Shown: piece by piece, positions 275-28,109 of the stretch | Numbering within the stretch: position 1 is the first letter of the stretch | Layout of the letters: the number at the start of each line of letters is the position of its first letter | Assembly (NCBI GenBank): GCA_030039675.1 | Contig: JASHVE010000342.1 | Coordinates: 1 to 37,099 of the forward strand | Direction: 5' to 3' | Source: Acidobacteriaceae bacterium | GTDB lineage: Bacteria; Acidobacteriota; Terriglobia; Terriglobales; Acidobacteriaceae | DNA length: 37,099 nucleotides | Made by a program: the position numbers and the translations under genes | Notes under the pieces: generated by a model | What the model was told of the DNA's origin: nothing | The model's input: the letters and a program-made list of their open reading frames with translations, nothing else | Databases searched by the model: none

Positions 275-1330
275 TCAGTTTTGAGAAACTACTCCGGTAG
301 CCGGCTGGGCGCCCGTGTCTGCCTGCGTATCCGACGGCGCTTGTACCTCAGGAGCCGGCTGCGAGTTCGTGGCGGGTTGCGCAGCCGGCGCCTGTTGTCC
401 CGAGAGAACCAAGTTCAACGGCTCGGTCAGCGTGAAGAGCAGCGCTGTGCCGGAATCAAGAGTGGCCTGGGGATGGTCCACAAGCAGATGCACGGTGATG
501 GCGCCCGCGCCGATCAGTGTGCCTGCCAGAGCGCCAGCTGGTCCGCCCAAAACGGCGCCGGTAATGGCGCCTGCACCCACAGCACCGCCGTACTCGATGC
601 TGTCCTTCTTCAGGCGCGAGTCAGGAGAAACGGAACCTTCACTGCTTACGCGCGTATTCGAGCCGGGAGCTCCCATGAGCTGGGCGTAAAGATGGTAGCG
701 CGCACCGTCCGGCAAAATGACCGTCTCAGGTCGCAGGAGCATCGAGCCATGCCCTCCGGCGTGACCGCTGGAGACCTGTACGACGGTGCCATCGATCTCA
801 GCTCCGGCAGGAATCAGAATCTCGTTGCCCTGGAAGACATCCGAAGCGACACGCGTGCGAAAAGGCTCGCCGGGTTGGCTTTCTGCGCTCGAAAGAGTAT
901 CGAGCAGGCGAACGCGGATCTCAGTGCCTGCGGCAAGCATGCCGGGGGGCAGCGGAGCGGGATGCACAATGTCTCCATCGGGATCGCTTGCCTCTGTGCG
1001 TTCATTCAGCGTCGGCTGCGCCGGGGCCACATGCACGATGTCGTCATCCCCGCTGTCCTGGCTTGGGCCGCCAGTAAAGGTCTCGGCAGGAGCCGGCTGC
1101 GGCTGCGCTTGACCGGGCGCGGGAAGCGGTTGCGCAGGCGCCGCAGGCTGCGCATATTGCGCCGCCGGTGGTTTCGCGGCAGGCGCGGCGGGCGGCGGCG
1201 TGTTGTCGATAATCGTGTCGTCGGGCGGAGGGTTGGAGGTTCCCGAATAGGGATTCGACTGAGGATTCTGCGCCGCGAGCGAAATAGCAGCCGCAACCCA
1301 CAAGGCGCACACAAGAACTGGGCGATTCAT
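275..1330 (-). CDS. Exported proline-rich protein with a glycine-zipper segment
   Basis: This is a 351-residue protein of unknown function. Residues 1-20 are a signal peptide ending near SLAAQ. Residues about 25-125 are a proline/alanine/glutamine-rich linker. Residues about 130-230 form a compact domain containing a GTEIRVRLLDTLSS strand and an ILIPAGAEIDGTV segment, which loosely resembles the beta-rich domain of VirB10/TrbI proteins. Residues about 247-285 are a Gly/Ala-rich stretch with GxxxG spacing that could insert in or pack against a membrane. The C-terminus is again low complexity. The start is supported by AGGAG about 6 nt before the ATG. It stands alone, with a terminator directly downstream, so it is probably monocistronic. 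The VirB10 resemblance is a visual impression only; no other secretion gene is nearby. Confidence 0.8.
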   Translation of the reverse strand: MNRPVLVCALWVAAAISLAAQNPQSNPYSGTSNPPPDDTIIDNTPPPAAPAAKPPAAQYAQPAAPAQPLPAPGQAQPQPAPAETFTGGPSQDSGDDDIVHVAPAQPTLNERTEASDPDGDIVHPAPLPPGMLAAGTEIRVRLLDTLSSAESQPGEPFRTRVASDVFQGNEILIPAGAEIDGTVVQVSSGHAGGHGSMLLRPETVILPDGARYHLYAQLMGAPGSNTRVSSEGSVSPDSRLKKDSIEYGGAVGAGAITGAVLGGPAGALAGTLIGAGAITVHLLVDHPQATLDSGTALLFTLTEPLNLVLSGQQAPAAQPATNSQPAPEVQAPSDTQADTGAQPATGVVSQN

Positions 1331-5590: not shown

Positions 5591-7201
5591 TTATTTGTGG
5601 CTGCCTCCACCGCCTCCGCCACCACCCCCACCACCGCCTCCACCGGCATGCCCTCCTCCACCGCCACCACCCGTGCTGGGAGCGCCGCCACCGTGGAAGC
5701 TTCCGCCAGCCGGTGCACCGCCGCTCGGATGGCTGGCCGGGGGTGAGTAACTCCTGGCCGCGGGAGCCGGAGCGCTATGATACTGCGGGCCGATAACGCC
5801 TGGCGCGGCGGTATAGCCTCCTCGAGGCGCAGTGTAGCTGGGCCGCCCGGTCGAGGTGAATCCGCGCGCAACGCTTCCGGCATTCGCGTAGATGTGCGCC
5901 TCGTGGTCCGCGAACTCCGCAGCCGGCCGCTGATAATCGGGCCGCATCGGCAACGGCCGTAATGCCTGCACGCTGTTGCCGGCAATGGTCACCGGAGTAT
6001 TCCGGTCCCGCGAGGGCAGAGCCCCCGCCGTTGCTGCGATGTGCCGATTGACGGCAATCATCGGAACGGGCGCTCCGCGCCCCGGCGCACGCGGCAATAT
6101 AGGCCGCTTGGGGGGGTGATATCCCGGCGGCAGGAAACCGCCGAACCTGGGACCTACGTACAAACCCGTCCCCCACCATGGCTGGCAGCCGCCTAATCCC
6201 GGCGCCCAGCCCCAACCGAAACCGTCATAGAAGTTCCAGAGTCCGCACTGGTACGGCAAATAGCCCCATGGATAGCCGGAAACCCAGAGGTAGCCGTAAC
6301 CCGGCGTATACATCCAGTTGCCGTACCCGTAGGGGTCCCATCCGGTGTTTGCGGCGTCGTAGGGGGACCAGACATAGCCTTGTCCAGGCACGTCGTACCA
6401 GTTGCCGTTGGCGTCCAAATCGTTCCAGGCGGGATTCTGGCTTTCGTTGGGAGAGAGGCTATTCGCTGCGCCGGTTTGCGTGGTCGCTTCGGCGGTCAGC
6501 GCCTGATCGCGATCGGAGTTCCACGCGTCCCAGGAGTCCGGCGCGATCGATTCGGCAACGACCGAGTGGCTTTCATCGCCGGCATTCAGCGCCACACTTT
6601 CGCCGCCGTGCAGGTCAAGCGCCAGTGCTCCGTTGGCTCCTTCCAGATGCGCATTACCAGAGAAGACGGCGATATCGCCCGGAGGCGTGTCCATCTTCAC
6701 GCGCACAACGGTAAAGCCGCTGGCTGCGGCGGCGGCATCGCCAAAGTGCACGCTCATCTGTCCGGACTGGCTTGAGCCCTGCAACTCAAAATAGCCAAGG
6801 CCGCTATTGAGGGTCATCTCGGCGTCGCCGTCGGGCCCTTGTCCGCGCAGCACATTCAACGTGAGCGTGCTGTCAGGCGAGATCCGGGCGACACTTCCGT
6901 CTTCGAACTCGACTTCGGCGCGGCCGTCGTCTCCCGTGCTTACCTGCATGCCTTCAAACAGCGGAGAGTTGGCAGTCGCCGGGTCAGCCAGGACCTGCCC
7001 CCCCTGGGTGACCCGCACCTTGCCCTCCACATAGCTCAGCCGGATCGCGCGCGTGCCGGGAGTCGCCCCACCTTGACCGGCATCATCATCCGCGCGCAGC
7101 GTCGGCGCCAGAAAGACGGCTACCAAGGCTACAGCCGCAAGTGCCGGGCGCCGTGCGGCCACCAGGCGTTCACTTAGATTTCTTTCTTCCATGCGATTCA
7201 T
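5591..7201 (-). CDS. Exported FecR-domain / DUF6600-type protein with glycine-rich tail
   Basis: A 536-residue exported protein. After a signal peptide (residues about 15-37, ending PTLRA) comes a FecR-like domain (about 50-150) with the typical EGKVRVTQGG, MQVSTGDDGRAEVEFEDGS and ARISPDSTL segments. A middle region (about 255-350) is unusually rich in Trp, Tyr and Gly in WYDVPGQGYVWSPY-type repeats, matching what is known as DUF6600. The tail is Pro/Ser/Gly-rich and ends in long glycine runs. The start at 7201 has AGGAAGG 8 nt upstream; an ATG nine bases later is a weaker alternative. Unlike canonical FecR there is no adjacent FecI sigma factor or TonB receptor gene, so a surface or envelope structural role is more likely than iron signalling. 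It is monocistronic with a strong terminator. Confidence 0.85.
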   Translation of the reverse strand: MNRMEERNLSERLVAARRPALAAVALVAVFLAPTLRADDDAGQGGATPGTRAIRLSYVEGKVRVTQGGQVLADPATANSPLFEGMQVSTGDDGRAEVEFEDGSVARISPDSTLTLNVLRGQGPDGDAEMTLNSGLGYFELQGSSQSGQMSVHFGDAAAAASGFTVVRVKMDTPPGDIAVFSGNAHLEGANGALALDLHGGESVALNAGDESHSVVAESIAPDSWDAWNSDRDQALTAEATTQTGAANSLSPNESQNPAWNDLDANGNWYDVPGQGYVWSPYDAANTGWDPYGYGNWMYTPGYGYLWVSGYPWGYLPYQCGLWNFYDGFGWGWAPGLGGCQPWWGTGLYVGPRFGGFLPPGYHPPKRPILPRAPGRGAPVPMIAVNRHIAATAGALPSRDRNTPVTIAGNSVQALRPLPMRPDYQRPAAEFADHEAHIYANAGSVARGFTSTGRPSYTAPRGGYTAAPGVIGPQYHSAPAPAARSYSPPASHPSGGAPAGGSFHGGGAPSTGGGGGGGHAGGGGGGGGGGGGGGSHK

Positions 7202-7350: not shown

Positions 7351-8016
7351 TTAGGTATTGCCCCCCTGCGCCAGAAGCAGCTTCGCCCGCTTTCTTACCC
7401 GTTCCAGCACCTCATCGTCCTCGGCCAGCCGCACCAGAATCTCCCGGATCGTGCAGATTTGCTGGGCACGTCCGTTACCGGCAGCATCCACCAGGAACTC
7501 CATCTCTTTATCGAGCCCCAAGCGGTCGTGCTGCAGCAGCATCTCCAGCCGCGCTCCCTCGAGAATGGTCTCAGCGACCGCGTTCAGAGAGTCGCCGAGT
7601 GCCTCAATCTCCTTGTCCTTGGAAAAATTGAATGTGCAGGACCCGCTGCCGCCGGGTCCGGTGTAACTGAGCTTCTTCCATCCCTGAAAAGCCACTTTGA
7701 GGTGACTGTCGCAGTCCTCGTTGAAGAACTTGTGGCGCTGGGCGGTCTCGAAGACGTGCGCGGCGAAGCTGGGGCTTAGTTGAACGTCCCGGTCTACGCT
7801 CGGTGCGTCGATCTCCGGTTGGTTGCCCTGCACTGGCTTGCCCATCTCAGAATGAAAATGACCGCTTCCATCCGGGTGCACTGTAAGCGTCCAGTGGGGA
7901 GGATTCAGGTCCGGATTGGAAAAGTCCACAACAAATACCTGACCCTCGGCAAACCCTGTCCGGCAGCCCGCACCAATGACAAGCGCGACGAGCGTCAGCG
8001 CCAACGACATCCTCAT
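7351..8016 (-). CDS. Small exported protein of unknown function, coupled to ruvC
   Basis: A 221-residue protein with a hydrophobic N-terminal signal (residues 2-23, MSLALTLVALVIGAGCRTGFA). The cysteine at 18 is preceded by IGAG, which is not a good lipobox, so it is probably secreted rather than lipidated. The mature part contains a possible beta-rich half (about 27-130) with WTLTVHPDGSGHFHSEMG and a charged helical C-terminal half. I do not recognise the family. Its ATG overlaps the ruvC stop by four bases (ATGA, 8013-8016), so the two are translationally coupled with ruvC upstream. A DNA-repair role is not implied, since the protein appears exported. Confidence 0.75.
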   Translation of the reverse strand: MRMSLALTLVALVIGAGCRTGFAEGQVFVVDFSNPDLNPPHWTLTVHPDGSGHFHSEMGKPVQGNQPEIDAPSVDRDVQLSPSFAAHVFETAQRHKFFNEDCDSHLKVAFQGWKKLSYTGPGGSGSCTFNFSKDKEIEALGDSLNAVAETILEGARLEMLLQHDRLGLDKEMEFLVDAAGNGRAQQICTIREILVRLAEDDEVLERVRKRAKLLLAQGGNT

Positions 8017-9209: not shown

Positions 9210-10133
9210 CTACTTCCCGGTGTACGGGTCGGGCACCGGTTGTGCGCTGTCGAGCCAAGCGGTATAGATCATGTCCCGCAACATGCTGGCTCCGGCAGCC
9301 AGACGCTCCGCGGCAAAGTCGCGCGACTCCGCTGTTCCCGCGCCCACAAAGCCGCCCACCTTCTCAAGTTGATAGACCTTTTCGACAAACGTAGCCGTGT
9401 GGCGCAGGTAGGCAACGTAGGCGTCAAAGAGATCGCCCTCGACAGCCTTGACTGGCGTCATCTTGGCCCCGACCTCCGGCGCATGGATGTTCGCGGCGAC
9501 AAACTGGGTTTCAAACTGGGAATGAATCTGGTGGTCCGTAGTGTAGCCGTTGGGATTTGGGCCGGTCCAGCCGTTGTACTGCACGGTGACGTGCAACGGC
9601 TGCGAACCATCGCCTACATAATGGCCGAGCCAGCCTGCATAGAAGAGGATCGCCTGCTCCACCGGCTTGGTGTCCTGGTTGGCGGCCTTGATTTCGCGGT
9701 ACTGGCGCATAGCCGCCTTGAGCCGCTCCCACACCTCGTCGGTCTGCCAGGGCTGCAAGCCGATCTTCTCCGGTCTCTGGCCTGCGGCAAAGACCTTGGC
9801 TTCAAAGTCCAGACGCTTGCGGGGCAAGGGCCCCAGGGCATCGGCGAGTTCCAGGTCGATGAAGTGCTCCGGCGCCTGTGCCGCGCTCAGCTCCGGCTCG
9901 GCCGGAGAACGCCAGCGGTCAGGCTCAGGTCCCAGGTATTCGATCTCATCGACGGCCGCCGGGGAGCGCAGAAAGTCTGGAACCTCGGCCGGGAGCGTAC
10001 TGGCCGCGAGCTTGTTGATCATACGATGCCCTTCATTACCCCAGGCGTGCGCCAACGGGGTCTGCAGGGCAAGGCAGACTGCTCCGGTTACAGCCAGCGC
10101 CGGGAAACGACTTAAAGCAAAATTGCGCAGCAT
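9210..10133 (-). CDS. S1/P1-type nuclease, exported
   Basis: A 307-residue protein of the S1/P1 nuclease family, zinc-dependent phosphodiesterases that cleave single-stranded nucleic acid and often remove 3' phosphates. A signal peptide of about 30 residues ends in PLAHA, so the mature protein begins with Trp31 (WGNEGHRMI). That is the expected feature, since in P1 nuclease the N-terminal Trp itself binds zinc. Further metal-ligand motifs are GHR near 35, PEHFIDLEL, GWLGHYVGDGSQPLHV with its His-Asp-His pattern, and a late DHQIHSQFE. ATG 10133 fits the signal peptide; upstream starts to 10187 add no recognisable sequence. The protein should act in the periplasm or outside the cell, probably for nucleotide or phosphate scavenging. 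It ends 13 bases from the convergent DUF2062 gene. Confidence 0.9.
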   Translation of the reverse strand: MLRNFALSRFPALAVTGAVCLALQTPLAHAWGNEGHRMINKLAASTLPAEVPDFLRSPAAVDEIEYLGPEPDRWRSPAEPELSAAQAPEHFIDLELADALGPLPRKRLDFEAKVFAAGQRPEKIGLQPWQTDEVWERLKAAMRQYREIKAANQDTKPVEQAILFYAGWLGHYVGDGSQPLHVTVQYNGWTGPNPNGYTTDHQIHSQFETQFVAANIHAPEVGAKMTPVKAVEGDLFDAYVAYLRHTATFVEKVYQLEKVGGFVGAGTAESRDFAAERLAAGASMLRDMIYTAWLDSAQPVPDPYTGK

Positions 10134-10463
10134 GAGAGCCAGTATACGGACAGGGACCGCGCACCCCGAAGACTGCCCGAGTAGCACTGTTATTTCGCGG
10201 AGGATTGTGGCGTTGCGCCGCCGTTTTCACTAGTGGAATTCGAGCGTTCGAGCGGGCGCCGGGACGGAGCGTCGCGTGTAGAATCGTCGCGGACCATAGA
10301 ATCAGAACCTGTGCGCTCTTCGAGCAGTTCCCGAATTAACGTCGACTTTTTGAGAGCTGCGTAGGGTGGCCTTTTCTTGAGGAAAAGGCCACTTAAACAT
10401 CTCCGTTCGGTATACACAAATTCGGGAACTGCTATAGCCTTTCGTGTTCAGAAGGAGAATTAC
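10134..10463. other. Intergenic region carrying repeat copy A
   Basis: About 330 bases between the nuclease and the transglutaminase-like gene. The right third is repeat copy A (10323-10433). The remainder (10134-10322) shows no convincing gene; a short minus-strand frame from 10297 to 10190 would give a 35-residue Ser/Arg-rich peptide that looks like noise. Confidence 0.5.
10323..10433 (+). repeat. Dispersed MITE/REP-like element, copy A (inverted relative to copy B)
   Basis: A 111-bp unit bounded by perfect 15-bp terminal inverted repeats (AGCAGTTCCCGAATT at 10323-10337, its complement at 10419-10433). Inside is a hairpin at 10366-10392 with an 11-bp stem (GTGGCCTTTTC / GAAAAGGCCAC). The same unit occurs in reverse orientation at 27919-28028, with almost all differences confined to a short spacer left of the hairpin, a few bases right of it, the loop, and one base in a terminal repeat. 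No coding capacity and no clear target-site duplication. It ends 30 bases before the GTG start of the next gene, so it may contribute to that gene's leader. Confidence 0.88.
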
Positions 10464-11234
10464 GTGGCAAACATCTACATAAAATACCGAGACAGGATCG
10501 AGCGTTTTTTGGGCGAATTTGCAGAAGTGCAACCCGCAGATGCCATTCCTTTGGACCAGGCAGATCTTGCGGCGTTGCCTTCGACGATCGGCGGGCAGGT
10601 ACTAGCTTCCCGCCCGGGCGCTAACTTTCAGGCTCTGTTCACGAACTTTAACCTCCTGACCAATGGATTTAACTGGGACCCCTCGGGAAAGGGCTCCTTT
10701 ACAGTTGCGAAGACCCTCGAGACGCTGGATGGGACCAGGACATCAGGGGAATGCAAGGTGTTGGCCGCGGCGCTGTTGGGGTTATGGGTATTCCCGCCAC
10801 CTCTCGGTCTGGGACAGTCCCGTTCGACTCCGAAGGCTTCCCTGTACAGGTTCGAGAATTACTCCGACGATGATGGGTTCATCTCACACCACCCACTCCT
10901 GGGTGTTCGCAACCTTTCGCCGAACATTCTGCACCCGCACGGAAACCGCTCCGACCGGAACACATACCAGCCGCTTTACCAGTGGGGTGACCACAAGGTT
11001 GTCTTCTACGATGGCAAATTGTGGGATCCCTCTTACAAGGAGGTGTGGAACCACGAGGACGAAATGGTGGCGTTTGACTTTACCGGCCAGAAGCATCCCA
11101 AAGACCCAAATGCGTATCAAGTGAAAGTGGTAACTCCGAACCAGGCGAAGGGCTGGCTCGCTGGCCAAACGATGTACATAGTGCTCGATCTCAACGCAGG
11201 CGGCTGGAAGGGTCCGTATCGAGCGATCGGTTGA
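10464..11234 (+). CDS. Unknown protein, possible transglutaminase-like / papain-fold domain
   Basis: 256 residues from a GTG start that has AGAAGGAGA just upstream; the frame is open back to 10377 inside the repeat, but that part is repeat-derived. I do not recognise a named family. The order of motifs suggests a transglutaminase-like cysteine protease fold: Cys97 at the head of a helix (SGECKVLAAALLGLW), His177 on a strand (GDHKVVFYDG) and Asp188 in KLWDPSYKE, the classical Cys-His-Asp order with the 'xHxVxxYxGxxWDPS' look. There is no signal peptide or membrane segment, so it is probably cytoplasmic. The 11235-11675 gap separates it from the next gene on the same strand. The fold assignment is inference; a plain hypothetical protein is the fallback. 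Confidence 0.72.
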   Translation: MANIYIKYRDRIERFLGEFAEVQPADAIPLDQADLAALPSTIGGQVLASRPGANFQALFTNFNLLTNGFNWDPSGKGSFTVAKTLETLDGTRTSGECKVLAAALLGLWVFPPPLGLGQSRSTPKASLYRFENYSDDDGFISHHPLLGVRNLSPNILHPHGNRSDRNTYQPLYQWGDHKVVFYDGKLWDPSYKEVWNHEDEMVAFDFTGQKHPKDPNAYQVKVVTPNQAKGWLAGQTMYIVLDLNAGGWKGPYRAIG

Positions 11235-11675
11235 AGCCTCTACGTCCCGCGAACGACCATCCCCAGCCTGCGGGAAAAAAGGGGCGGCGGCGGGAAAGCA
11301 TAGATAGGAAACCGGAAACCGGGTTGCACCTTATTCGGCAACTATGCCCCTAAAATGCTATGGAGGCTCTCTGGCCAAGCCGTATACTACTTCCAAATCG
11401 CGCTCAGGAACCTTAAAACGGCTGCGATAGACTCCGAATATTTTCCCGGATCGGTGTTGTCGTAACTAAGGCAGATTTAGTCCTGCTCTTGTGAGAGAAG
11501 TGCTAGAACGCATCTGTCTCTTGAAGAGGACTGCGCCGTAGGTAGCGGTGTGATGAATACGTTGGGTTTTCCGTGGGTCCCAGGTGTTGCGGGGGCTGTG
11601 CCTGGCGAGTGACGGGGCTCGAACGTTAGTTAGCTCGCGGGTGAAGCAAGCGCTGAAAATGTGACGGGGGGCCCA
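11235..11675 (+). other. Long structured leader before the hybrid kinase
   Basis: About 440 bases without a confident gene. Visible items: a hairpin near 11309-11325 (AACCGG pairing with CCGGGTT with one bulge), a region 11468-11552 that partly resembles a c-di-GMP-I riboswitch (listed separately), and a 19-codon ATG frame at 11553-11612 that could be a leader peptide or chance. Confidence 0.5.
11468..11552 (+). ncRNA. Possible c-di-GMP-I (GEMM)-like leader element, tentative
   Basis: Three pieces occur in the order used by GEMM-I riboswitches: AAGGCAGA (11468-11475), a hairpin from 11476 with TTTAG pairing to CTAGA (outer part) and CTCT/AGAG at its tip, then ACGCA (11508-11512), then CCGTAGGTAGCGG (11536-11548). 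The last closely resembles the known CCGGTAGGTAGCGGGG segment. Against it: the conserved AAAGCC after ACGCA is missing and the hairpin loop is not GNRA. It lies about 120 bases before a signalling kinase, a sensible place for such an element. Treat as unproven. Confidence 0.2.
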
Positions 11676-14600
11676 ATGGCGGTCCGATCAGGGGAGATCG
11701 GGACAACAGAGAAAGAGCAACCCGCGGTCGGGATCGCACTGCGTCTCGCTTGGCCCATTCTCGCGGCTCTGGCTCTTGCCGCGGCGACGGGGGCCGTCAT
11801 CTTACGCATTACCGCGGGTGAGCGCTACGACGGCTTTCTGGTGCTCGGCGCCGTGCTCGCAGCCGCGGTCTTAGCTCTCCGTTTGCCCACTCGTTCCCGC
11901 TCCTCCGATACGCCTGCACTTGAATTGGGCAGCGGACTGCCCAAGGAACTTCTGGAATCGGCCGGACCGGCTGTTGTTGCGGTGGGTCTGGATGGCCGCC
12001 TGATGTACGTCAACCCCGCTGCCGAGCGGTTGCTCGGTTATCACGCGGCAGAGCTGACTGGCGAGTGGAATACGGCGGATATCCTGACCAAAGGCGAAGG
12101 AATGCGCCTTGTCGGGGAGATGCAAAAGCTCTGCGGCATCGAAAAGGCGCCGCAATCCACGCCGTCGGGCTTGTTTGCCGATTATCTCGACTGTGTGCGT
12201 GTGCTGCCTCCCAGCATGGTACCCAGCTTTGAAGCACAGGTGCTGCGCAAGGATGGCGTCGCCGTTCCTGCGACCCTGCACATCTCTGCCTTGCGCGACA
12301 GCGCCGGCGGACTTATCGGACTAGTGGCTGTCGCCGTGGACCAGAGTGCGACCCATCGCCAGGATCAGGCGTTGCGCGAATCGCAGGAGCGTTATCGGGA
12401 TCTGTTCGAGAACTCCAGCGAAATGATCGCCACGCTCAGCCCGGCGGGGCGATTCCTCTATGCCAATCCCGCATGGAAGCGGTGCTTTGGCTACGGGGAC
12501 GCTGCACTGCTGGCCCTCGATTCGTTTGAAGATCTCTTTGCTCCCAGTTGCCGCGGCGAGGTGGCTACGCTGTTCCGCCGGGCGCTGGATGGCGACACCG
12601 TTGATCGCGCCCAACTCCGCCACCACACATCCGATGGACGAATCCTGGATCTCGAACTGAGCCTGAGCCAGCGCCAAAAGTCTGGGAACCCGCTGGCCGT
12701 GCGTTGCCTGCTCCGTGACGTAACCCAGCAGAAGCAGCGCGAACATCGCCTGACGCTACAGCTCGTCGTCAGCCAGATCGTGGGTGAAAATATCTCCCCC
12801 GAGGCCGCGGCGCGGCGCATCCTCGAAGCCCTTTGCATCTCGCAAGGCTGGGATGCAGGCATCAAGTGGACGGTGGATGCACAGCAGAACCAGCTCGCGT
12901 TCAGCACCGCATGGGGAACTCCGGGCCGCCGGTCCGAGACGCTCATCCGTGAAAGCATGGCGATCGCCATTGACAGTGGTGCCGACCTCGCTGGTCGCGC
13001 CTGGAAAGACGCCCGGCCCGTGTGGGTGACTGACTTGACGGCACTGTCCCCTACGCCGCGTGTGCAATCGGTACTCCGCCAGGAGATGGCTTCAGGCTGG
13101 GCTGTGCCGGTACGGGTCGGCAACACAGTTCTCGCCATTCTCGAGTTCTACAGCCGGAACCGCCTTCGTGAAACCCGTGAGGCGCTGGCCACGGTGGAGA
13201 CGGTAGCCGCATCCCTGGGGCAGATGCTGGCCCGCTCCCAGGAACGCGGCCGCGCCGAGGAACTCTACCGGCGCCAGGAGGCATTGCTGGACTCCGTGGC
13301 AGACGGCATCTGCGGCCTGGACCAGAACGGCAGGGTCAGCTTTGCCAATCCTGCCGCGGCCCGCATGCTGGGAGCCGAGGCATCTGCCCTCACCGGCATG
13401 CTGGTGCATGAACTGCTCCACGGCTCTGCGCCGGCAGATCGCGCCTGCGGCGAGGACTGCCCGCTCCAGCGCAATGCATCGCTGCCGCGCGCCACGGCCG
13501 GCGAAGCCACGATCTTCCGCACCGACGGATCATCCTTTCCGGCCGAGTACGTCCTGACGCCGATCGCCGACCAGGGCCGCTCGTCCGGCTCTGTGCTGAG
13601 CTTCCGCGACATCAGCCAGCGGTACGCGCTGGACCGCTTGAAGGACGAGTTCATTTCCACCGTCAGCCACGAGCTGCGCACGCCGCTCACCTCGATCCGC
13701 GGCGCGCTGGGACTGCTCTCTTCCGGCATACTCAGCGATCTGAACGGCAAGGCCGCAAATCTTCTCCGCATCGCATTGACGAACTCCGACCGGCTGGTGC
13801 GGCTGATCAACGACATCCTCGATCTTGAGCGCATTCAGAGCGGCCGCGCCCCGCTGGCGTTCCGCACCGTGCAGTTGGCGGAGATCGTTCGCCAGGCGAT
13901 CGACGGCATGCAGCCGGTAGCCGACGCGGCCGGTGTGCAGCTGATTCACGATACGACGCAGGTGGAAATTGCCGCCGACCCCGATCGGCTGCTCCAGGTG
14001 CTTACCAACCTGCTTTCAAACGCCGTGAAATTCTCTCCACCGAATTCGGCTGTCTCTGTGATGCTGCGTCCAGGCATTACGGGCGTGACCATCTCCGTGA
14101 TCGATCATGGCCGCGGCATCCCTGCCGACAAGCTCGAAGCCATCTTTGGACGCTTCCAGCAGGTCGACGCGTCCGACTCGCGCCAGAAAGGCGGAAGCGG
14201 ACTCGGGCTGGCCATCTGCCGCACAATCGTTCTGCAGCACTCGGGCCGCATCTGGGCCGAGCGGAATCCTGTCCGCGGGTCGACATTCCGCGTCTTCCTG
14301 CCCTATCAACCCGTTCCGCTTGAGCCAGGCGAACCACTCGTAGAGGAGACTCGCACCGGGACGGTAATTTTGGCCGGCGCCGGCGCTGAGGCTCGCCCAC
14401 GCATCGCGGCGCAGCTGGTGCGCCACGGTTATCGCGTCATCGAATCTTGCACCGTGGAACAGACCCTTGCCGCTGCCGCGGAGAACGTGCAGGCGATCCT
14501 GCTGGACACGGCGCTGGACGGCATGAACGGCTGGGAGATTCTGCCGCTGTTGCGCCGCCTCGATCCCGAATCCCGCACGCCGATCGTTCTACTCTGCCTG

Positions 14601-15137
14601 GACAGCTCGCACACCCCCGTCGAGCTGCCTGTGGGAGCTGAGGGATGGGTCTCAAAGCCGTTGCAGGAGGACGCGCTACTCGGTGAGCTGGCCCGCGTTT
14701 TGTGCGGACCTGGCGAAAAAGCCCGCATCCTGGTAGTCGAAGACGACGAAGATCTCGCCCGCGTGATTAGCGAGGTTTTTTCTCGGGAGAGCATTGAAGT
14801 ACATCTGGCGCACTCGCTGCAAGAGGCCATCGACGCGTGCTTCGCGTTCCAACCTCATCTGATGGTGCTCGACATCGGCCTGCCGGATGGAAACGGTTTT
14901 AATGTCGTCGACTGGCTGCGGCAGAATGAAAATCTTTCCGGTTTACCGCTGGTGGTTTACTCGGGCCGCGAGCTTTCTCCTACGGAGCGGCGCCATCTTA
15001 CCCTCGGTCCCACGCACTTTCTCGCCAAAGCCCGCGTCCAGCCGCAGCAGCTCGAAGCACTGGTCCTCACCATGCTGCGCCGTTCGCGACTGATGGAAGA
15101 TGTGCCGTTTCCGGAATCCTCCGTGCCGAACTCGTAA
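11676..15137 (+). CDS. Hybrid sensor histidine kinase, PAS-PAS-GAF-PAS with two receiver domains
   Basis: About 1150 residues (numbers from an alternative GTG at 11661; ATG 11676 removes five). Domains in order: two transmembrane helices (about 31-50 and 58-75) with almost no periplasmic loop; PAS (95-230); PAS (240-355); GAF (365-525); PAS (535-650); HisKA with phospho-acceptor His670 in VSHELRTPL; HATPase (765-885) with N box NLLSNAVKFS, DHGRGIP and GGSGLGLAI; receiver 1 (900-1015); receiver 2 (1020-1140). Receiver 2 has the full acidic pocket (Asp1028, Asp1029, phospho-acceptor Asp1071, Lys1123). Receiver 1 keeps Asp949 and Lys999 but has AGAGAE where the acidic pair should be. Little extracytoplasmic sequence implies sensing in the cytoplasm or membrane. 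The next two genes encode a receiver and an Hpt protein, so a multi-step phosphorelay is likely. Confidence 0.95.
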   Translation: MAVRSGEIGTTEKEQPAVGIALRLAWPILAALALAAATGAVILRITAGERYDGFLVLGAVLAAAVLALRLPTRSRSSDTPALELGSGLPKELLESAGPAVVAVGLDGRLMYVNPAAERLLGYHAAELTGEWNTADILTKGEGMRLVGEMQKLCGIEKAPQSTPSGLFADYLDCVRVLPPSMVPSFEAQVLRKDGVAVPATLHISALRDSAGGLIGLVAVAVDQSATHRQDQALRESQERYRDLFENSSEMIATLSPAGRFLYANPAWKRCFGYGDAALLALDSFEDLFAPSCRGEVATLFRRALDGDTVDRAQLRHHTSDGRILDLELSLSQRQKSGNPLAVRCLLRDVTQQKQREHRLTLQLVVSQIVGENISPEAAARRILEALCISQGWDAGIKWTVDAQQNQLAFSTAWGTPGRRSETLIRESMAIAIDSGADLAGRAWKDARPVWVTDLTALSPTPRVQSVLRQEMASGWAVPVRVGNTVLAILEFYSRNRLRETREALATVETVAASLGQMLARSQERGRAEELYRRQEALLDSVADGICGLDQNGRVSFANPAAARMLGAEASALTGMLVHELLHGSAPADRACGEDCPLQRNASLPRATAGEATIFRTDGSSFPAEYVLTPIADQGRSSGSVLSFRDISQRYALDRLKDEFISTVSHELRTPLTSIRGALGLLSSGILSDLNGKAANLLRIALTNSDRLVRLINDILDLERIQSGRAPLAFRTVQLAEIVRQAIDGMQPVADAAGVQLIHDTTQVEIAADPDRLLQVLTNLLSNAVKFSPPNSAVSVMLRPGITGVTISVIDHGRGIPADKLEAIFGRFQQVDASDSRQKGGSGLGLAICRTIVLQHSGRIWAERNPVRGSTFRVFLPYQPVPLEPGEPLVEETRTGTVILAGAGAEARPRIAAQLVRHGYRVIESCTVEQTLAAAAENVQAILLDTALDGMNGWEILPLLRRLDPESRTPIVLLCLDSSHTPVELPVGAEGWVSKPLQEDALLGELARVLCGPGEKARILVVEDDEDLARVISEVFSRESIEVHLAHSLQEAIDACFAFQPHLMVLDIGLPDGNGFNVVDWLRQNENLSGLPLVVYSGRELSPTERRHLTLGPTHFLAKARVQPQQLEALVLTMLRRSRLMEDVPFPESSVPNS

Positions 15138-27801: not shown

Positions 27802-28109
27802 ACCTTAACAATTTTAGCAACTGCCGCCGCGTCATGTTCTGCAGGCACGCGCACTAACTAAGATGCAAGTCTGCCAAGTCGGATTCCGCGGTGCGATCGC
27901 CAGAATGTTGAGCTGACTAGCAGGTCCCGAATTTGTGTATACCGAAGGAGGATGTTTAAGTGGCCTTTTCTTCAAGAAAAGGCCACCTTGCACGGCCTCA
28001 AAAAGTCGACGTTAATTCGGGAACTGCTGTAAACCTCAATTTTCAGCCCACCCAGCCGCCGGTCCTCGTCGCTGGGTGAGCTGAGACCTGGAGCAACTCG
28101 TGCCGGTTT
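27802..28109. other. pal-cpoB spacer carrying repeat copy B
   Basis: About 310 bases within the tol-pal cluster. Repeat copy B fills 27919-28028; the flanks show no gene. The spacing here is much longer than within tolQ-tolR-tolA. Confidence 0.5.
27919..28028 (-). repeat. Dispersed MITE/REP-like element, copy B
   Basis: A 110-bp unit that is the reverse complement of copy A (10323-10433). Terminal repeats are 15 bp with one mismatch (AGCAGGTCCCGAATT at 27919-27933 against AATTCGGGAACTGCT at 28014-28028). The internal hairpin at 27960-27986 has a longer stem than in copy A (GTGGCCTTTTCTT / AAGAAAAGGCCAC, 13 bp around one central base). On the pal transcript it would form a strong stem-loop in the spacer before cpoB. 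Confidence 0.88.

What the first reader, a model, noticed from the sequence alone, without database searches (positions are those of the whole stretch)
10464..11234. Unrecognised protein with a transglutaminase-like Cys-His-Asp arrangement
Cys97 at a helix start, His177 on a strand and Asp188 in WDPSY follow the order and local look of transglutaminase-like or papain-fold enzymes, but the rest matches no family I know. It is next to a repeat and has an unusually long gap downstream, so it may be an accessory gene.
Basis: inference. Interest (0 to 1): 0.52.

Follow-up and report, generated by a model that had tools for sequence, protein, structure and literature searches.

The report
Rare orphan Cys-His-Asp enzyme family
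A small bacterial gene that matched no named family turns out to belong to a very rare, undescribed protein family in which the suspected cysteine, histidine and aspartate are always kept, so it is probably an enzyme related in style to papain and transglutaminases, though its fold and its job remain unproven.

Summary
The ORF at 10464-11234 is real: GTG start, AAGGAG six bases upstream, 256 codons. No Pfam or NCBIfam model matches the protein at E up to 10; its only PHROG hit (E 0.02) looks like chance. Genome searches found four relatives at 24-31% identity to it: two in another genus of the same family, two in a second family of the class. That supports the observation well and the interpretation in part: a Cys-His-Asp thiol enzyme, most likely papain/transglutaminase-like. 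The fold is untested: both AlphaFold models failed (mean pLDDT 36.5, 31.6). A rival set, Cys97-His143-Asn154, is equally invariant. The gene is accessory: 1 of 80 genus genomes has it, inserted with a ~111-bp repeat (at least 40 genome copies) between a conserved S1/P1-type nuclease gene and a histidine-kinase gene. The downstream gap is partly conserved kinase leader. In two of five loci a NucA/NucB DNase gene lies convergently beside it. The substrate is unknown.

The parts
10464..11234 (+). Coding sequence of the orphan protein, 256 aa, GTG start
   Evidence: relatives align from near residue 1 to the end
10452..10457 (+). AAGGAG, likely ribosome-binding site, 6 bases before the GTG
10752..10754 (+). 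Codon of Cys97, proposed nucleophile; only Cys of the protein and only invariant Cys column
10992..10994 (+). Codon of His177, proposed general base, invariant in 5 of 5
11025..11027 (+). Codon of Asp188, proposed third residue, invariant in 5 of 5
10890..10892 (+). Codon of His143, invariant in 5 of 5; rival catalytic His
10923..10925 (+). Codon of Asn154, invariant in 5 of 5; rival third residue
10323..10433 (.). Repeat element: 15-bp perfect inverted ends, inner hairpin GTGGCCTTTTC..GAAAAGGCCAC; at least 40 copies in the genome (83-100% identity)
10151..11336 (.). Stretch without counterpart in the empty-site relative G040 (about 95 bp there, about 1.19 kb here): holds the repeat and the gene
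   Evidence: limits approximate
11337..11458 (.). Part of the 'long gap': conserved leader region before the kinase gene (76% over 123 columns with G040)
9210..10187 (-). Left neighbour, S1/P1-nuclease-like protein (Pfam 1.6e-9), a gene of the conserved flank
11661..15137 (+). Right neighbour, multi-PAS hybrid histidine kinase, divergent from the nuclease gene in relatives

Best explanation
The gene encodes a small stand-alone thiol enzyme of a rare, undescribed family that works like papain-like/transglutaminase-like enzymes. Cys97, at the start of a helix, is the nucleophile and attacks a carbonyl carbon (a peptide bond or a Gln side chain) to form a thioester. His177, on a strand, activates it. 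Asp188, on the next strand across an Asp183-Gly184 turn, orients the histidine. The acyl group then passes to water (protease or deamidase) or to an amine (transglutaminase). Shown here: the gene, the family of five, invariance of C97/H177/D188, purifying selection in one pair of relatives, and patchy, inserted occurrence. Inferred: the fold, that these residues are the catalytic set, the reaction chemistry. Not known: substrate, location, role.
For: Four relatives: G593 and G672 (E 1.9e-15, 2.6e-15), G1033 (1.7e-29 by profile), G1130 (6.4e-33 by profile). Five-way alignment: 31 invariant columns, among them C97, H177, K178, D188 and Y191, and no second Cys column. dN/dS between the two closest relatives is 0.097/1.56 (dS is near saturation). 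Both AlphaFold runs put a helix at 94-109 and strands at 177-182 and 185-187 (low confidence). PMC10318531 (passages read) describes the papain-like core as a helix with Cys at its N terminus and strands beta2 and beta3 giving His and a polar residue, which is this order.
Against: No Pfam match for 4 of 4 members scanned, at E up to 10 (the fifth was not scanned); no PDB sequence match of note. His-Asp spacing of 11 is short: GtgE has 18 (Cys45/His151/Asp169, abstract in listing) and VASH1 has 17 (His204/Ser221, passages). His143 and Asn154 are as invariant as His177 and Asp188. The rest of the 'DPSY' box is not invariant (DVMY in G1033). Five sequences are few.
Confidence: 0.6

Rival explanations
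1. The same kind of enzyme with another catalytic set: Cys97 with His143 and Asn154, both invariant and also 11 apart; H177/D188 would then be structural.
For: H143 and N154 are invariant in 5 of 5, and the order Cys-His-Asn is that of papain (recalled).
Against: H143 stands in a segment with an HP pair in four members and a 4-residue insertion in G1130 just after it; H177/D188 sit in the longer conserved block W-x2-HK-x3-Y-x-G-x3-D-x2-Y.
Confidence: 0.12
2. Not an enzyme of this fold: the invariant Cys, His and Asp bind a metal or hold a fold of another kind.
For: No profile or structural link to any papain-like family was obtained; invariant C, H, H, D could bind a metal.
Against: One Cys only, helix-start Cys, strand-turn-strand His-Asp in both models (low confidence).
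Confidence: 0.2
3. The protein is a weapon: a toxin or effector of conflict between bacteria, carried as an accessory gene and delivered with or beside a NucA/NucB DNase. (A statement about role; it can hold together with the best explanation.)
For: NucA/NucB DNase gene (Pfam 4.9e-9 and 6e-9) convergent with it in G593 and G672; patchy occurrence; papain-like/transglutaminase domains and Tox-NucA are both listed as polymorphic toxin domains in PMC3482391 (passages).
Against: The pair is in 2 of 5 loci, those two being close kin; the genes are convergent, not an operon. The near neighbours scanned in the other loci are household or sugar/lipid enzymes. No immunity gene, secretion signal or carrier domain was found, though I ran no signal predictor.
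Confidence: 0.2

Closest known systems
Transglutaminase core (Pfam PF01841) and its kin in the papain-like 'cluster III' of PMC10318531
   Same: Order Cys-His-Asp, Cys at a helix start, His and Asp on neighbouring strands with an aromatic residue before Asp in most members (inference from sequence).
   Different: No sequence or profile match; shorter His-Asp hairpin; extra conserved block (P-x-P-x-G-L-G to G-F-x3-H) between Cys and His.
Tox-TGase / Tox-PL papain-like toxin domains (PMC3482391, passages read)
   Same: Papain-like set C, H, D; accessory occurrence; in two loci beside a NucA/NucB gene, a toxin kind in the same paper.
   Different: Stand-alone short protein with no carrier, repeats or immunity neighbour found; no PADLOC or Pfam match.
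Vasohibins and bacterial vasohibin-like proteins, some in Acidobacteria (PMC4866520, passages read)
   Same: Transglutaminase-like thiol enzymes missed by ordinary searches.
   Different: Cys-His-Ser/Thr set with spacing 35/17 (C169, H204, S221) against 80/11 with Asp here; no match.

Membership tests
Papain-like superfamily (clan CA-like fold) | Helix with Cys at its N terminus packed on a sheet whose strands carry His and a polar residue | tested here: inconclusive
   Two AlphaFold runs, mean pLDDT 36.5 and 31.6; elements in the right order but not trustworthy
Papain-like superfamily (clan CA-like fold) | Conserved Cys-His-(Asp/Asn/Glu) in that order | tested here: met
   C97, H177, D188 invariant in 5 of 5 members; catalytic role not tested
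Papain-like superfamily (clan CA-like fold) | Detectable homology to a known family of the fold | tested here: not met
   0 Pfam matches at E<=10 for 4 of 4 members scanned; PDB profile searches with 3, 4 and 5 members gave no papain-like match. No profile-profile search against known families could be run
Transglut_core (PF01841) | Match to the Pfam model above its cut-off | tested here: not met
Transglutaminase activity | Acyl transfer from Gln to an amine | not testable with these tools
   needs an enzyme assay
Polymorphic toxin with papain-like/TGase domain | Carrier or secretion domains and a neighbouring immunity gene | tested here: not met
   Stand-alone 238-278 aa proteins; Pfam scans of the nearer neighbours show no such domain; short or unnamed ORFs were not all scanned

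The most novel reading that the evidence does not exclude
The founding example of a new papain-fold enzyme family, confined so far to five genomes of one bacterial class, that modifies or cuts a protein in conflict between bacteria and travels as accessory cargo, in some genomes beside a NucA/NucB DNase.
Probability: 0.12. Interest if true: 0.55.

Novelty: new member of a known kind. Interest (0 to 1): 0.36.

Why it matters
It turns a one-sequence hunch into a small family with a sharp, testable signature (one invariant Cys, two invariant His, an invariant Asp in the His block). If the fold is confirmed, it adds a family to the papain-like superfamily that Pfam and NCBIfam do not hold. PMC10318531 itself notes that high diversity hinders finding new members of this superfamily. 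For the genome it shows an intergenic spot where a repeat element and cargo were gained between two conserved genes. It is of moderate interest until a substrate is known.

Tried and rejected
Searches that led nowhere: patterns from the single protein in genome contigs (22 stretches, none a relative) and viral contigs; plasmids and phages by tblastn at E 0.01 and 10; the same with relatives; viral contigs with alignments of 3, 4 and 5 members. PDB by sequence gave nothing of note.

phrog_19760 (E 0.02) covers the His177/Asp188 region, but when all three members then known were scanned it matched the window protein alone (1 of 3), and the family rang in 4 of 396 phylum genomes only at E 0.02-0.05. 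I read it as chance. Weak hits in G037, G496 and contig C507 of the own genome lie across other reading frames or in unrelated proteins, without the motifs. The Ensifer plasmid hit likewise. G320, G407, G851 hits: 3 of 3 checked with the five-member profile, best 0.047, no Cys or His/Asp motif. G1124 (E 0.0075) was not inspected beyond its row; it did not show in the part that I printed.

Error of mine: the degenerate motif pattern was one base short, so it was out of frame. The corrected pattern matches the window once and viral contigs nowhere. It could no longer be run on genome contigs.

The first AlphaFold model was sent to Foldseek: 157 matches at E<=10, none at E<=0.001, meaningless at that confidence.

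Full report
What is there. The ORF 10464-11234 codes for 256 aa from a GTG with AAGGAG six bases upstream. Its GC is 0.557, lower than the 15 other window genes I measured (0.588-0.651).

Family searches. Pfam, NCBIfam and PADLOC give nothing at E up to 10; PHROGs gives one weak hit judged chance. By single sequence the protein was alone among 99 relatives, 396 genomes of the phylum and 80 of the genus (45 other genomes show only weak hits, the places of two of them and one in the own genome inspected and rejected). The family-wide search found two relatives among 398 genomes (G593, G672; two further hits are the weak ones just named). A profile of three found G1033 among 399 genomes of the class (three further weak hits rejected), no more than G593 and G672 among 15 genomes of their genus, and a profile of four found G1130 among 155 genomes of G1033's family (one weak hit, G1124, not examined further). 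That makes five members. The genome samples overlap, so I give no overall frequency. The tools name no taxon for these genomes; I would guess Acidobacteriota (recalled impression, untested).

Residues. In the five-way alignment, 31 columns are invariant: A27 L58 F59 W71 L88 D89 C97 A101 L107 P111 P113 G115 L116 G117 G138 F139 H143 V148 L151 N154 Y172 W174 H177 K178 Y182 G184 D188 Y191 M201 G250 P251 (one search adds M1). Pairwise identity of the window protein to the others is 24-31%. For three random positions that has probability 0.0016; choosing one Cys, one His and one Asp at random, 0.034. The two closest relatives (85% identical) differ with dN 0.097 and dS 1.56, so this is a protein under selection. 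H143 and N154 are just as invariant, so the second and third members of the set are not settled by conservation alone.

Geometry, as inference. H177-K-V-V-F-Y182, turn D183-G184, K185-L-W-D188. If D183-G184 is a two-residue turn, 182 pairs with 185 and 179 with 188, which puts D188 on the same face as V179 and H177, one step off. A classical His-Asp pair is possible there in spite of the short spacing of 11. Both AlphaFold runs show helix 94-109 and strands 177-182 and 185-187, but at mean pLDDT 36.5 and 31.6 I give this little weight.

Place in the genome. The S1/P1-type nuclease gene on the left is in 53 of 59 genus genomes. Of the 29 loci from other genomes that I fetched, 24 show the kinase gene beside it, divergent as here, and 29 of 29 lack the target within about 1.5 kb either side, where the contig allows (five show no kinase in the fetched stretch, and one of the 24, L025, matches only an inner part of the kinase). 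Against G040 the window has about 1.19 kb where G040 has about 95 bp. This stretch holds the gene and, about 30 bases before its start codon, a ~111-bp element with perfect 15-bp inverted ends. The element has at least 40 copies at 83-100% identity in this genome, the one here included (only 40 of 169 first-look candidates were scored, so this is a lower bound). Whether element and gene arrived together is not known. The gap behind the gene is partly kinase leader: 11337-11458 is 76% identical to G040.

Neighbours of the relatives. In G593 and G672 the gene is convergent with a NucA/NucB DNase gene (Pfam 4.9e-9 and 6e-9); in G593 the pair sits between dnaN and parB, and G672 aligns along most of the same stretch. 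In G1033 the neighbours are a PI-PLC-like and an enolase-superfamily protein; in G1130 a 3-keto-disaccharide-hydrolase-like protein and an RRM protein. No neighbour is shared by all. No NucA/NucB relative was found in the window or the G1033 locus.

How it most likely works. A thiol enzyme of papain/transglutaminase style: Cys97 attacks a carbonyl, His177 activates it, Asp188 orients the histidine, and the acyl group goes to water or an amine. The residue set is supported; fold, chemistry, substrate and role are inferred or unknown. PMC10318531 (passages and its section 10 read) describes this core and the breadth of activities in its cluster III: deamidases, transglutaminases, peptidases, acetyltransferases. 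I therefore do not choose a substrate. A conflict role is a rival at about 0.2, resting on the NucA/NucB neighbour in two kindred loci, patchiness, and the presence of both kinds among polymorphic toxins (PMC3482391, passages).

Known or new. It works like, but has not been shown to be, a member of the papain-like superfamily: the ordered residue set is met, the homology test is not met, the fold test is inconclusive. It is not a member of PF01841 by the test made here. I found no account of it in three literature searches, which were not made on a name, as it has none.

Noticed in passing
window 10323-10433 and 27918-28028: A ~111-bp palindromic repeat (15-bp inverted ends, inner hairpin) with at least 40 genome copies; L037 also holds a second hairpin with similar core but different ends, perhaps a related family.
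   Followed up: partly
L103:717-1157 (+) and L104:2179-2628 (-): NucA/NucB DNase genes convergent with the relatives of the target in two genomes of one genus; in G593 between dnaN and parB.
   Followed up: partly
L104:299-1114: DUF3800-like ORF (Pfam 0.0014, just under its cut-off) overlapping an apparently broken transposase-like ORF (my reading), an insertion not seen at the G593 locus.
   Followed up: no
window 7351-8016 (-): ORF of 221 aa beside ruvC with no Pfam match.
   Followed up: no
window 275-1330 (-): ORF with a sub-threshold TrbI-like match (6.2e-6, under Pfam's cut-off).
   Followed up: no
window 5591-7201 (-): Protein of 536 aa with an extremely Gly-rich C-terminus and Trp/Tyr/Gly-rich middle; not scanned.
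   Followed up: no
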